A DNA stretch of 64,000 nucleotides from Psychrilyobacter piezotolerans (lineage in GTDB: Bacteria; Fusobacteriota; Fusobacteriia; Fusobacteriales; Fusobacteriaceae), in the NCBI RefSeq assembly GCF_003391055.1, contig NZ_QUAJ01000016.1:1-64000 (forward strand), given 5' to 3'. Below are positions 27,808 to 53,085 of this stretch, piece by piece. The translations under genes were made by a program, and so were the position numbers. The stretch's first letter is position 1. The number at the start of each line of letters is the position of its first letter. The notes beneath the pieces were generated by a model. That model saw nothing but the letters and a program-made list of their open reading frames with translations. It was not told the origin of the DNA and ran no database searches.

Positions 27808-29292
27808 TTATTTCAAATAATAGATACTCTCCATTACCTTCTCCAATTTTTCAGATATTTTGGTTCCGCTCATCCCATGATGATTTATTATTATGGAGAA
27901 GGCCAGCAGATCTCCGTCAACATTATACATATATCCCCCGTAGGATTTTACCCCTGTAAGAGTGCCGCTCTTCCCGTGAAGATTATCCACTAAGACCGTC
28001 TGTTCTTGAAACTTTTTAAAGGTTCCATTCTTTCCGGGTTCAGCCAAAGAATCATAGAAACTAGAAAAATTCTCGGATTTTTTCATATATTTCAAGAGTT
28101 CTACAAGAGTGTCAGGGGTCACCCCATTGTAACGGGATAACCCGCTTCCATCATAGATATACAGTCCCCTTGCAGATAAACGATTACTCCAATACCCCTT
28201 CATTGTTTCAACACTCTCTTTACTTTTTCCCCTTAATTTCTTCTCAGCCTCTATCTTTAGATGTTCTGAAAATAGGTTTACACTATATTTATTTGTATAA
28301 CCTATGATCTCCTCCAGTTTAGGAGAATACTGGGTATAAATAAGGTTATTTTTATTTATAGCTTTATCGTTTTTCCCCATTAACCTGCCGCCATTATTTT
28401 TTATGCCTTCCTCTTTTAAAGTTTTAGAAAATATTACAGCCAGGGCAGAAGCAGGATCCTGCATCACTGTATTGTATGAAATTATTGGTTTATTCATAGT
28501 TCCCAGTGCAACTATTTCATTGGTGTAAGGAGACACTACCAGGGTTATTTTAGACGGCCGGATTTCATCTGCTGCAACTCTGTTGGTTACCACAGTATTA
28601 ACCCACGACGGGGACACACTTGCCCTGATATTTCCATCTTCCCTTTGCAGTATCAGCCTGATACTGTTATCCAAAAAAGTAAGCCCGCTGGGTCGGGAAG
28701 CAAAGGTGTACCTCAGATCCCCCCATTCCCACGTTTGAGACAGAGTTGTTTCAGGATAATAAGATGGGTCGGCTACTATCTGGCCATTAATTTTTTTTAT
28801 CCCCATGCTTTTAATTTTTTCTGCCCAGATATTTAAAAATTCCAGCTGTTTCTTTTTTTCCCCTGTTGTTACCCTTTCAGGATCTTCTGCAGCCAGATAT
28901 TTAGACCCCAGGGTGGGATCTCCCCCGCCAATAATATAGATATTCCCGTCTAAAGTCCCGTCCGATCCTATCTTCCCGTCATAGGCTAAGATAGTTTTAA
29001 ATCTATAATCTTTCCCCAAAATTTCCAAAGCTGCTCCTGTTGTCAATAACTTCATATTGGAAGCAGGCACCAGGGATTTATCAGGGTTTAATTTAAATAA
29101 AGTTTTACCACTTTCTAAGTTCACAACTTTCATCCCCAGGCTGGCATTTTCTGTCTGAGGCATATGCGTAAAGTCATCCACTGCTTTCTCTGTGGCAGAT
29201 TTTATTGGAACAACTGGAGTTTCTGTACTCCTGCACGAAATTATAGATACCAGGATTATCAATAAAACTAATTTTTTTAATATATTTTTCAT
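27808..29292 (-). CDS. D-Ala-D-Ala carboxypeptidase/endopeptidase, lipoprotein (S13, PBP4-like)
   Basis: A 494-residue penicillin-binding protein of the S13 family. It trims D-alanine or cuts cross-links in peptidoglycan. A lipobox SIISC (Cys20) anchors it. The active-site triad is complete: SNMK at 78-81, SVN in KYSVNLFSEHL and KSG in GKSGTLTG. The large insertion between SxxK and SxN is typical of PBP4/DacB. Its start overlaps the stop of the S66 gene by 4 bases, so the two wall peptidases are likely made together. Confidence 0.93.
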   Translation of the reverse strand: MKNILKKLVLLIILVSIISCRSTETPVVPIKSATEKAVDDFTHMPQTENASLGMKVVNLESGKTLFKLNPDKSLVPASNMKLLTTGAALEILGKDYRFKTILAYDGKIGSDGTLDGNIYIIGGGDPTLGSKYLAAEDPERVTTGEKKKQLEFLNIWAEKIKSMGIKKINGQIVADPSYYPETTLSQTWEWGDLRYTFASRPSGLTFLDNSIRLILQREDGNIRASVSPSWVNTVVTNRVAADEIRPSKITLVVSPYTNEIVALGTMNKPIISYNTVMQDPASALAVIFSKTLKEEGIKNNGGRLMGKNDKAINKNNLIYTQYSPKLEEIIGYTNKYSVNLFSEHLKIEAEKKLRGKSKESVETMKGYWSNRLSARGLYIYDGSGLSRYNGVTPDTLVELLKYMKKSENFSSFYDSLAEPGKNGTFKKFQEQTVLVDNLHGKSGTLTGVKSYGGYMYNVDGDLLAFSIIINHHGMSGTKISEKLEKVMESIYYLK

Positions 29293-30203
29293 CTGACTGC
29301 TCCCTCTAAACTCCTAATCGTTAATTCATCACAATCTATCTCTATCTCTATCCCCAGAGGGAGAGTTACCATGGGTTTACAATGACCCGATTGAAAATTA
29401 TAGATTATGGGAATACCTAAATTTTCCAGCCTGTCTTCCAATAGATCCATGAGGTTCATATCGTATTCCGATGCAGGAATGCAGTTATTAAAATCTCCCA
29501 GGATGATTCCATTTAACTGATATAGTTTTCCTGAATTTAAAAGCTGAGTCAGAGCACGGTCAATCTTATATGTGGGCTCCCTGATCTCCTCTACAAATAA
29601 TATTTTTCCTTTAAAATCAAGTTCATTTGTAGTCCCCATATCTGCCATAAGGGTTGTCAAATTCCCCCCTGCCACTACCCCAACAGCCTTTCCTCCTGCC
29701 AGAGATTTTAATTCTATCGGATTTATTATTTCTCCTGGCTGGATTCCTTCCACACTTTTTCTAAATGAATCTGTGGTAAATTTATCTATATCAAAAAAAT
29801 TAGACGCTGCCATGGGACCATGGAAGGTAACTAAACCAGCCTTTTGGTTCAATGCACTATGAAGTGTTGTAATATCACTATATCCTATAAATACCTTGGG
29901 ATTTTTCCTTATCATCTCGATATCCAGGTCCTCTACAATCCTGATACTTCCATATCCCCCACGAAGACACATGATGGCATCTACCTCTGGATCTTTAAAA
30001 AAATTATTTATATCCGATACTCTCCTTTTATCCGTTCCTGCAAATGAATGCCAGGTATCAAAGATATGTTTTCCCAGTTTCACCTTATATCCCAGACTTT
30101 CCAACCTTTCTTTCGATCTCAGCACCTTCTCTTTGGAACCGGAATTAGCAGGAGCTACAACTCCTATGGTATCTCCTTCTTTTAATTTTTTTCCCTTTAA
30201 CAT
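29289..30203 (-). CDS. LD-carboxypeptidase (S66 family)
   Basis: A 304-residue serine peptidase of the LdcA/MccF family. The nucleophile is Ser109 in FIGYSDITTLH; AIMCLRGGYGSIRIV and the late FQSGHCKPMVTLPLG carry the remaining family marks. LdcA removes the terminal D-Ala from murein tetrapeptides during wall recycling; MccF-type members cleave microcin C. Coupling with an S13 peptidase favours the wall-recycling role. The ATG is preceded by AGGAGG. Confidence 0.92.
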   Translation of the reverse strand: MLKGKKLKEGDTIGVVAPANSGSKEKVLRSKERLESLGYKVKLGKHIFDTWHSFAGTDKRRVSDINNFFKDPEVDAIMCLRGGYGSIRIVEDLDIEMIRKNPKVFIGYSDITTLHSALNQKAGLVTFHGPMAASNFFDIDKFTTDSFRKSVEGIQPGEIINPIELKSLAGGKAVGVVAGGNLTTLMADMGTTNELDFKGKILFVEEIREPTYKIDRALTQLLNSGKLYQLNGIILGDFNNCIPASEYDMNLMDLLEDRLENLGIPIIYNFQSGHCKPMVTLPLGIEIEIDCDELTIRSLEGAVR

Positions 30204-30231: not shown

Positions 30232-30260
30232 TTTACATTCTTTCAAAAATAAGTTATACT
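30232..30260 (+). promoter_or_regulatory. Promoter for a candidate small RNA
   Basis: TTTACA (30232-30237), 17 bases, TATACT (30255-30260) on the plus strand, in a spacer that has no plus-strand gene. Confidence 0.65.
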
Positions 30261-30266
30261 GTCTTT

Positions 30267-30392
30267 GAAATGTGTTAGCGACATTATGGTGTTTCTAATG
30301 CTGAGCCAGTAAACTTTCTCAAAAGGTTTACTGGCTCTTTCACTTTATAGAGTTTCCCTCCTTTATCTTCTAGACAAGGAGGGATTTTTTTT
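30267..30392 (+). ncRNA. Candidate intergenic small RNA of about 126 nt
   Basis: A consensus-like promoter, a stable 11-bp hairpin (AGCCAGTAAAC at 30304-30314 with GTTTACTGGCT at 30326-30336) and a classic terminator lie in the right order. The terminator has arms CCCTCCTT at 30356-30363 and AAGGAGGG at 30376-30383, then T8. The spacer lies between the S66 gene and topB, both minus strand, so the terminator cannot serve them. The only frame inside is an eight-codon ATG frame at about 30286. The terminal arm is CU-rich and could pair with ribosome binding sites. Start point estimated from the promoter. Confidence 0.55.
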
Positions 30393-30435
30393 ATTTTTGA
30401 TTATGACTAATTGGATGCAGCGTCACGTTGCTTTT

Positions 30436-32511
30436 TTATTCTTTTTCCGGAAAATATTTTTCTAATTTTAGGTTCACATATTTCCCTGTATCCTCTAATT
30501 TAAATTCAGCTGAATACATCTTCTCATTTTTACCCTTTATCTTCTTTACAAGGATAGGTTCTCCTTTTATTAATTTTTTAGCCCTTGTTTTGGATATCTT
30601 CACTTCGATAGATTTATATTTACTTTCTTTCCATAGGGTAAAATTGCACGGCGGGGTATCTCTATAACCTACACATGAAAATCCCCTGCTGTTCTCATAG
30701 ATATTCTTGCCGCATCTGGGGCAGATTCCTATTATCTCTCTTTCTGAATCATCATATACCCTGGGTATCTCTATATTCTGGCCTATAATTTTCTGCAGTT
30801 CCCCTGTAACCAGATCTATGGTTTCCTGGATAGTGCTGTTTCCCTTATACACTTTTTTCAGGAGTTTGGAAAATTCCACAGTTTTTGTTTTATATAGATC
30901 CACATTTAATTTATCCAGGGTCTCCACCACTTTTTGACCCAATGGTTCCAGAGAAAAATTAGAACCTTTCTGTGATATATATTCATATTTTTTGGCATTT
31001 TCTATTATCCCTGTTCTCGTAGCCTCGGTTCCTATCTCTATCCCCTTCAACATAGCTCTATATTCATCCTCTTCAGTATCACTGTCCTTCCTAAATGGAT
31101 TTTTTAAATGGGCTGACAGTTCCCTTTCCGATACTTTTCTGGGGGGATTAGTTTCCTTTAATATTTTTTTAAACTGGACTTTAAAGATATCTCCTACAAT
31201 AAAATTTGGTAACTTATTCTCAAGATTTGCAGGTTCATACCTGTAAAATCCCTCCTGTACGACACTCTCCCCCGAAAGTTTAAACTTTTCCTCTCCCACA
31301 CCTATCGTTACCACAACCTTGGCTGTAATAGTTTCCTCAGCTACAAAGTTTGAAATAAAACGATTTAGAATAGTTTCATAGATTATTTTTTCCCGGCCAT
31401 TCAAATTGTTTTTGGGAAATTTCATCGTCGGAATTATGGCACTATGACTCTCCACCTTGTCATCATCAAATATCTTCTTGGAATCCTTAAATTTTACATT
31501 ATGATCCTTTGAAAGCACCTTTAGGAGCTGTTTAACCTTCCCCTTTTCATTTACCGCCAAATATTCTGTATTTGTCCTGGGGTATGTGATATATCCATTC
31601 TCATATAATTTTTGTATTATTTCCAATGACCCCTTAAAATCTATCTTATTTTTTTTCGAAAGCTGGGATTGTAATTTTGACAATGAAAATAACCTGCCCG
31701 GCTGTTTTTTTATCTCCTTATTTTCTTTAGATAAAACTATCCCCTCATAAGAGTTCAGTTCTTCACACTTTGAGTCAGCTTTTTTCTCAGCTTTCATGGG
31801 GTATTTGGTACTTTTAGACAATTTAAATTTAATCTCATCTTTTTCACATTCACTCTCAAGCTGGATATATTTTTCTTTGACGAATTTTTCTATGGCTATA
31901 TCCCTGTCATAGATAAATTTTAATACAGGTATCAGTACCCTCCCTACCGGCATCAACTGGCCGCTTTTCAGGGTGATATACCTGGTTAAATTTATCCCGA
32001 AGAGCCAGTCCATTACAGTTCGGGAATACCCCTCAAAAGCTAACCTTATATACTCCCTGTCAGGTTTTATATTTTCAACTTCCTTTATGATGGTTTCCTT
32101 GGTCTGCTCCGGCAGCCATAGTCTGTATACCTCTTTTTTGATCTTGGATTCCTTTATAATCCTATCTATTATTATCTGTCCCTCTCTGTCTGCGTCCCCG
32201 CAATTGATAATTCCTTCTACATCTTCCCTCTCCATAAGATTTTTAAGGATTTTAAATTGTTCGGCTATTCCCTTGCTTTCCTTCAATTTAAATTTAAACT
32301 TCCTGGGCGTAAAGGGGAGTTCTACCTCCTTCCACTTCATCTTCTGGCCAAAATAATCATCTACATCTGACAGTTCGAACAGGTGCCCGAATGCCCAGGA
32401 AACAATATATTTTTCACCTTCTATATATCCATTTCCTCTTTTTTTCAGGCCCAGTGCATTGGCTATATTTCTTCCTAAACTTGGTTTTTCTGCTATAATT
32501 AATTTTTTCAT
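30436..32511 (-). CDS. topB: DNA topoisomerase III
   Basis: A 691-residue type IA topoisomerase, which relaxes or decatenates DNA by single-strand passage. The Toprim domain opens IIAEKPSLGRNIANALG and has NCGDADREGQIIID. The catalytic tyrosine is in GYITYPRTNTEYL. A C-terminal zinc-ribbon-like module (CPRCGKNIYENSRGFSC...C) follows, then about 60 extra residues. The TopB-type call rests on Toprim layout and length; topA would be longer with more zinc modules. No clear terminator is seen beyond its stop. Confidence 0.92.
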   Translation of the reverse strand: MKKLIIAEKPSLGRNIANALGLKKRGNGYIEGEKYIVSWAFGHLFELSDVDDYFGQKMKWKEVELPFTPRKFKFKLKESKGIAEQFKILKNLMEREDVEGIINCGDADREGQIIIDRIIKESKIKKEVYRLWLPEQTKETIIKEVENIKPDREYIRLAFEGYSRTVMDWLFGINLTRYITLKSGQLMPVGRVLIPVLKFIYDRDIAIEKFVKEKYIQLESECEKDEIKFKLSKSTKYPMKAEKKADSKCEELNSYEGIVLSKENKEIKKQPGRLFSLSKLQSQLSKKNKIDFKGSLEIIQKLYENGYITYPRTNTEYLAVNEKGKVKQLLKVLSKDHNVKFKDSKKIFDDDKVESHSAIIPTMKFPKNNLNGREKIIYETILNRFISNFVAEETITAKVVVTIGVGEEKFKLSGESVVQEGFYRYEPANLENKLPNFIVGDIFKVQFKKILKETNPPRKVSERELSAHLKNPFRKDSDTEEDEYRAMLKGIEIGTEATRTGIIENAKKYEYISQKGSNFSLEPLGQKVVETLDKLNVDLYKTKTVEFSKLLKKVYKGNSTIQETIDLVTGELQKIIGQNIEIPRVYDDSEREIIGICPRCGKNIYENSRGFSCVGYRDTPPCNFTLWKESKYKSIEVKISKTRAKKLIKGEPILVKKIKGKNEKMYSAEFKLEDTGKYVNLKLEKYFPEKE

Positions 32512-43364: not shown

Positions 43365-43400
43365 AATCTCCTCCTAAATTTAGGAGGAGATTTTATTTTC
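43365..43400. terminator. Bidirectional terminator, 14-bp perfect stem
   Basis: AATCTCCTCCTAAA and its exact complement meet at the centre, with a T-rich tract on the right. It serves the plus-strand HAD gene and the converging UxaA-type operon. Confidence 0.88.
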
Positions 43401-52738: not shown

Positions 52739-53085
52739 GGGAGTGCACTGGTTTCGACAGGGGCATTAGGTTATAGGAAGCAGGTCAGGTTGACCGCTGT
52801 GAGAGGTCAAACCATTTTTTAAATGGAAACGAAAATTACGCAATAGCTGCCTAATAGCGCAGCGTGTTCTACCTTCCTAAGGCCTGTGCAGGTCGGTAGA
52901 ATATAATTAACATCAGGCTTACCAATGGTTTCGTCATTAAACCTGCGGGACATCTTTAATTGACTGGTATAAACTGGTTCTGTTTGTGAGACGAGTTTAT
53001 ACGAGACTAATTCACGAAATAAGCTTGTAGAAACCTATAATACTGGTGTTCTTGGACACGGGTTCAATTCCCGTCACTTCCACCA
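52739..53085 (+). ncRNA. ssrA: Transfer-messenger RNA (tmRNA)
   Basis: 347 nt. The 5' end GGGAGTG pairs with CACTTCC near the 3' end, with one G-U pair. CTGGTTTCGACAGGGG is the conserved D-loop-like start. GGTTCAATTCC forms the T arm. CCA is encoded at the end. The resume frame at 52825-52854 starts GGA and encodes GNENYAIAA, ending TAA TAG. Such tags direct unfinished proteins to proteolysis. It is of the one-piece (not permuted) type. Confidence 0.97.

What the first reader, a model, noticed from the sequence alone, without database searches (positions are those of the whole stretch)
30232..30392. Candidate plus-strand small RNA in the S66-topB spacer
TTTACA-N17-TATACT, an 11-bp internal hairpin and a CCCTCCTT/AAGGAGGG-T8 terminator follow each other within 160 bases, while both flanking genes are on the minus strand. 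The terminal stem contains a sequence complementary to Shine-Dalgarno sites, so trans regulation of translation is possible.
Basis: seen in the sequence. Interest (0 to 1): 0.52.

Follow-up and report, generated by a model that had tools for sequence, protein, structure and literature searches.

The report
Conserved small RNA gene in Psychrilyobacter
A short stretch between two genes of a marine fusobacterium very probably makes a roughly 126-base non-coding RNA whose front part is almost unchanged across its relatives, so it is likely a real but uncharacterised regulatory RNA.

Summary
Promoter, internal hairpin and terminator are present as described, except that the internal hairpin is 15 bp, not 11, and a further hairpin lies upstream of it. 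The same unit sits beside topB in 6 of 8 genomes of the genus (Psychrilyobacter); in the other two the spot is not assembled or not found. The -35 box, the 17-bp spacing and a 35-nt 5' domain are invariant in all six, while only 3 of 44 four-fold degenerate sites of neighbouring topB are. The middle hairpin shows compensatory changes. No convincing match was found elsewhere in the class (98 genomes) or in Rfam.

The proposed mechanism, SD blocking by the terminator arm CCCTCCTT, is poorly supported. That arm is locked in a -15 kcal/mol stem, is not conserved, is missing in one genome, and a similar arm ends an ordinary gene at 43365.

Best reading: a genus-restricted trans-acting small RNA, acting through its invariant 5' domain and the conserved linker TTCACTTTAT. 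No target was found. It is a new member of a known kind.

The parts
30232..30260 (+). sigma70-type promoter TTTACA-17-TATACT
   Evidence: -35 identical, -10 TATA[AC]T and 17-nt spacing in 6 of 6 genomes aligned
30267..30392 (+). predicted small non-coding RNA, about 126 nt (start inferred 7 nt after the -10 box)
   Evidence: fold z -7.7; conservation in 6 genomes
30267..30301 (+). invariant 5' domain: GAAAT tail plus SL1 hairpin (12 pairs, 4 of them G-U, -9.5 kcal/mol)
   Evidence: 35 of 35 columns invariant in 6 genomes; pairs, fold
30303..30337 (+). SL2 hairpin, 15 pairs, terminator-like by itself
   Evidence: two compensatory pair changes, in one genome
30338..30353 (+). unpaired linker TTTCACTTTATAGAGT, its TTCACTTTAT part identical in 6 of 6
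30355..30392 (+). SL3 intrinsic terminator TCCCTCCTT...AAGGAGGGA plus T8
   Evidence: a hairpin here in 5 of 6 genomes with changed sequence, absent in G001

Best explanation
30232-30392 is an independent small-RNA gene of Psychrilyobacter. A vegetative promoter starts a transcript at about 30267. It folds into a weak, sequence-invariant 5' hairpin (SL1), a strong middle hairpin (SL2), a conserved unpaired linker and a replaceable terminator (SL3). Shown: the anatomy, its conservation under strong selection, and its placement between a divergent and a convergent neighbour. Inferred: that it is transcribed, and that it acts in trans by base pairing of the invariant 5' domain and/or linker with target mRNAs, perhaps helped by KhpA/KhpB-type proteins since no Hfq was found. 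The terminator arm is not thought to be the active part.
For: Promoter, SL1, SL2 and linker kept in 6 of 6 genomes where the topB 3' flank is assembled. The core has 74 of 86 columns invariant with a 36-nt invariant run, against 3 of 44 four-fold sites and a longest run of 14 in topB. SL2 is 98.9% paired with 2 compensatory changes. All six RNAs fold far better than shuffles, z -5.4 to -9.5. The unit stays when the upstream gene changes: S66 is absent beside it in G005 and G001, where the S13-type carboxypeptidase is next (named by likeness to the window's protein, Pfam run on the window's only). No open frame of 50 aa or more lies in the unit. Hfq: no match in own genome; KH_KhpA-B: 2 matches over cut-off. 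Trans-acting sRNAs in a host without Hfq are described in Fusobacterium nucleatum (PMC11005410, sections read).
Against: No transcript data. SL1 never varies, so its pairing is untested by covariation, and SL2's covariation rests on one genome (10 of 500 shuffles reach it). No target was found: exact 12-nt complements of the linker core number 8/5/5/2 in four genomes (the gene itself included) against 5/5/4/0 for the reversed control. The only site shared by three genomes lies in the minC promoter and start region and is read as chance. A 19-nt complement of SL1 at up to 3 mismatches finds only the gene itself plus one coding hit in G007. Invariance of paired bases could equally mean protein binding.
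Confidence: 0.55

Rival explanations
1. A protein-binding or housekeeping-like RNA: the invariant 5' hairpin is recognised by a protein (a KH protein, RNA polymerase or the ribosome) and the RNA titrates or modulates it, rather than base pairing with mRNAs.
For: 35 of 35 columns of the 5' domain invariant, both arms and loop, including 4 G-U pairs; single copy per genome; no convincing mRNA targets.
Against: No match to any Rfam family at gathering score; successive short hairpins unlike 6S (fold of 6S recalled); genus-restricted, unusual for a housekeeping RNA.
Confidence: 0.25
2. Anti-SD regulator: CCCTCCTT of the terminator blocks Shine-Dalgarno sites in trans.
For: CCCTC occurs in the 5' arm in 5 of 6 genomes; in Fusobacterium FoxI and FoxJ use C-stretches as seeds (PMC11005410, section read).
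Against: Arm fully paired at -15 kcal/mol; 2 of 39 SL3 columns invariant; no hairpin or CCCTC in G001; the same kind of arm ends an ordinary gene at 43365 and occurs in 2 of 5 strict terminator-like sites of the window, this one included.
Confidence: 0.06
3. Cis-antisense or transcription-interference element for topB: the plus-strand RNA, or readthrough from it, meets topB mRNA at its 3' end, with SL2 and SL3 merely stopping it.
For: Convergent placement next to topB in all six genomes; no minus-strand hairpin with T-tract was seen after topB at this spot (by eye).
Against: The most conserved part is the 5' end of the RNA, farthest from topB, not an overlap with topB; antisense function needs no invariant hairpin.
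Confidence: 0.07
4. Not a gene: chance promoter plus tandem intergenic hairpins.
For: The promoter scan of one genome alone is at chance level.
Against: Conservation far above neutral sites in six genomes and fold z-scores.
Confidence: 0.04

Closest known systems
FoxI and FoxJ of Fusobacterium nucleatum
   Same: Fusobacterial small RNAs conserved among related species, with intrinsic terminators, in a host without Hfq (PMC11005410, sections read)
   Different: They are sigma-E dependent with C-rich seeds and foxJ lies between der and ylmH; ours has a sigma70-type promoter, no unpaired C stretch, lies by topB, and its model finds no convincing homologue in the class. Direct sequence comparison with FoxI/FoxJ was not made.
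6S RNA (RF00013)
   Same: Small, structured, non-coding
   Different: The 6S model has 187 positions in one long bulged hairpin (recalled); ours is successive hairpins and gets no 6S match
PyrR binding site (RF00515)
   Same: Highest-scoring sub-threshold Rfam hit, 24.8 bits, E 0.18
   Different: Far below its gathering score of 54; a cis leader, whereas here no gene follows on the plus strand

Membership tests
Bacterial intergenic (trans-encoded) small RNA | Own promoter, independent of flanking genes | tested here: met
   Conserved promoter; both flanking genes on the other strand; upstream gene differs in 2 of 6 genomes
Bacterial intergenic (trans-encoded) small RNA | Intrinsic terminator | tested here: met
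   SL3 with T-tract in 5 of 6; G001 has only SL2 with a T-rich tail
Bacterial intergenic (trans-encoded) small RNA | Conserved at RNA level, non-coding | tested here: met
Bacterial intergenic (trans-encoded) small RNA | A discrete transcript exists | not testable with these tools
   no RNA data available
Bacterial intergenic (trans-encoded) small RNA | Base pairing with distant target mRNAs | tested here: inconclusive
   short-complement searches in four genomes only; nothing convincing
Any Rfam family | Score at or above gathering cut-off | tested here: not met
Anti-SD sRNA by terminator arm | Conserved, accessible SD-complementary seed | tested here: not met
Sigma-E dependent FoxI/FoxJ group | Sigma-E promoter and C-rich seed | tested here: inconclusive
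   A sigma70-type promoter is present and no unpaired C stretch is seen; no sigma-E motif model was run

The most novel reading that the evidence does not exclude
A genus-restricted, near-invariant RNA that works through a protein partner (for example a KH-type chaperone, RNA polymerase or the ribosome) as a global modulator in Psychrilyobacter, a job held by unrelated RNAs elsewhere.
Probability: 0.15. Interest if true: 0.6.

Novelty: new member of a known kind. Interest (0 to 1): 0.36.

Why it matters
It gives a compact, testable small-RNA gene in a marine fusobacterial genus for which the searched library held no paper with both 'Psychrilyobacter' and 'sRNA'. The 35-nt invariant 5' domain beside near-randomised synonymous sites marks a strong, unexplained constraint, and the host has no detectable Hfq, so it would add a case for RNA regulation without the classical chaperone. 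It does not overturn anything.

Tried and rejected
Anti-SD mechanism: rejected as main reading. Known Rfam family: none at threshold; 11 sub-threshold hits, among them PyrR at E 0.18, taken as chance. 6S RNA: no match in own genome. In the class it rings in 26 of 98 genomes, and in 1 of the 61 of this family, so its absence here says nothing special. Encoded peptide: no frame of 50 aa or more; one 8-codon frame across SL1/SL2 was seen by eye, it changes in G001, and no Shine-Dalgarno was seen. Homologues in other genera: three weak model hits, G055, G079 and G089 (E 0.002-0.1). The alignments of the first two match mainly on SL2-like stems, and all three were set aside. Minus-strand hits on the gene itself are the SL2 palindrome. 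Weak DNA matches to the promoter part in G028, G035 and G023 look like ordinary AT-rich promoters and lack the rest of the RNA. The match in G026 was also set aside. The topB homologue loci of other genera and the second copy in G007 (12 loci read) have different 3' neighbours, and no unit was recognised there. MinC as target: the 12-nt complement is shared by three genomes, but it overlaps the minC -10 and start region, so mostly outside the mRNA. The two genomes without the RNA: G003's contig ends 24 bases from the start of the topB stop codon, in a terminator-like arm, and G004 gave no topB match at the threshold used. Genome-wide target prediction was not done.

Full report
Observation. 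The sequence described is present at the stated place. TTTACA at 30232 and TATACT ending at 30260 are 17 bases apart. In the single genome such a site is not remarkable (6 found, 5.5 +/- 2.5 expected). The predicted RNA 30267-30392 folds into three main hairpins, -47 kcal/mol against -24.5 +/- 2.9 for shuffles. The neighbours are an S66 LD-carboxypeptidase followed by an S13 D-Ala-D-Ala carboxypeptidase upstream, and a topoisomerase (topB-type; Topoisom_bac and Toprim) downstream, all on the minus strand. No plus-strand gene leads into the spacer, so two plus-oriented terminator-like hairpins there make sense only for a transcript starting in the spacer (inference).

Relatives. A DNA search of 41 genomes found the unit in six genomes of the window's own genus. 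The SL1 27-mer, with up to 3 mismatches allowed, occurs once in each of 6 of 98 genomes of the class, all in this genus, and nowhere for the reversed control. A scan of the named collection of species genomes returned three records: a Psychrilyobacter MAG, Fusobacteriia bacterium 4572_74 and Fusobacteriaceae bacterium UBA2433. No viral contig holds an exact 20-mer of SL1. The covariance model found nothing convincing outside the genus (9 of 98 genomes at E <= 0.1: the six plus three weak ones). Of eight genus genomes the two without it are uninformative: G003's contig ends 24 bases from the start of the topB stop codon, within what looks like the terminator arm, and G004 gave no topB match at the threshold used.

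Selection. Among the six genomes the core alignment has 74 of 86 columns invariant and a 36-nt unbroken invariant run. In the adjacent topB 3' part 436 of 729 sites, but only 3 of 44 four-fold degenerate sites, are invariant; the longest run is 14. By part: -35 6/6, spacer 6/17, -10 5/6, 5' tail 5/5, SL1 30/30, SL2 28/37, linker 11/16, SL3 2/39. Constraint thus falls on the promoter boxes, 5' domain, SL2 and linker, not on the terminator. SL2 keeps 98.9% of its cells paired, with two pairs changed on both sides, in G001; SL1 never varies. All six RNAs fold with z between -5.4 and -9.5. In G001 and G005 the S66 gene is not next to the RNA and the S13-type carboxypeptidase is, so the RNA is not tied to S66.

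Mechanism. CCCTCCTT is an arm of a -15 kcal/mol stem, differs among relatives and is missing in G001. A similar terminator, CTCCTCCTA/TAGGAGGAG, closes an ordinary frame at 43365. The anti-SD idea is therefore unlikely. The likely active parts are the invariant 5' domain and the unpaired linker (inference). The host shows no Hfq but two KhpA/B-type KH domains over cut-off, like Fusobacterium nucleatum, which lacks Hfq and ProQ (PMC11005410, section read). That KhpA and KhpB bind small RNAs in F. nucleatum is known here only from a reference title seen. A short-seed search for targets in four genomes gave nothing convincing over control. The one linker-complement site shared by three genomes at a gene start, before minC (name recalled from the protein's look, not from a call), overlaps that gene's own -10 region.

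Known systems. No Rfam family reaches threshold. The nearest known things by kind are FoxI and FoxJ of F. nucleatum. Literature: no paper in the searched library holds both 'Psychrilyobacter' and 'sRNA' as whole words. Two large ncRNA discovery papers mention Fusobacteria but neither Ilyobacter nor Psychrilyobacter in the main text (PMC11109978 and PMC8632094, passages seen). Their supplements were not read.

Verdict. A real, strongly conserved, genus-restricted small RNA gene (about 0.85-0.9 that it is a genuine non-coding RNA), with trans base pairing the most likely but unproven way of working.

Noticed in passing
30395-30436 (core 30413-30431): A dispersed repeat, GGATGCA[AG]CGTCACGTTGC followed by a T-tract (small hairpin), lies behind the sRNA terminator: 46 copies in this genome, 62 in G006, 46 in G007, 4 in G002, 0 in G005 and G001, 70 in G011 of another genus; reversed control 0 in all seven (up to 1 mismatch). 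Some copies keep the same place between genomes, just before genes, others lie at convergent gene ends.
   Followed up: partly
43365-43392: Strong terminator CTCCTCCTA/TAGGAGGAG behind an ordinary plus-strand frame, with the same anti-SD character as the sRNA terminator.
   Followed up: partly
whole class (G handles): The Rfam 6S model rings in 26 of 98 genomes of the class but in only 1 of 61 genomes of this family, and in none of the eight of this genus; a diverged 6S RNA may await description.
   Followed up: no
29289-30203: The S66 carboxypeptidase between the S13 carboxypeptidase and the sRNA is absent from this spot in G005 and G001.
   Followed up: no
52739-53085: tmRNA gene with tag GNENYAIAA.
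   Followed up: no
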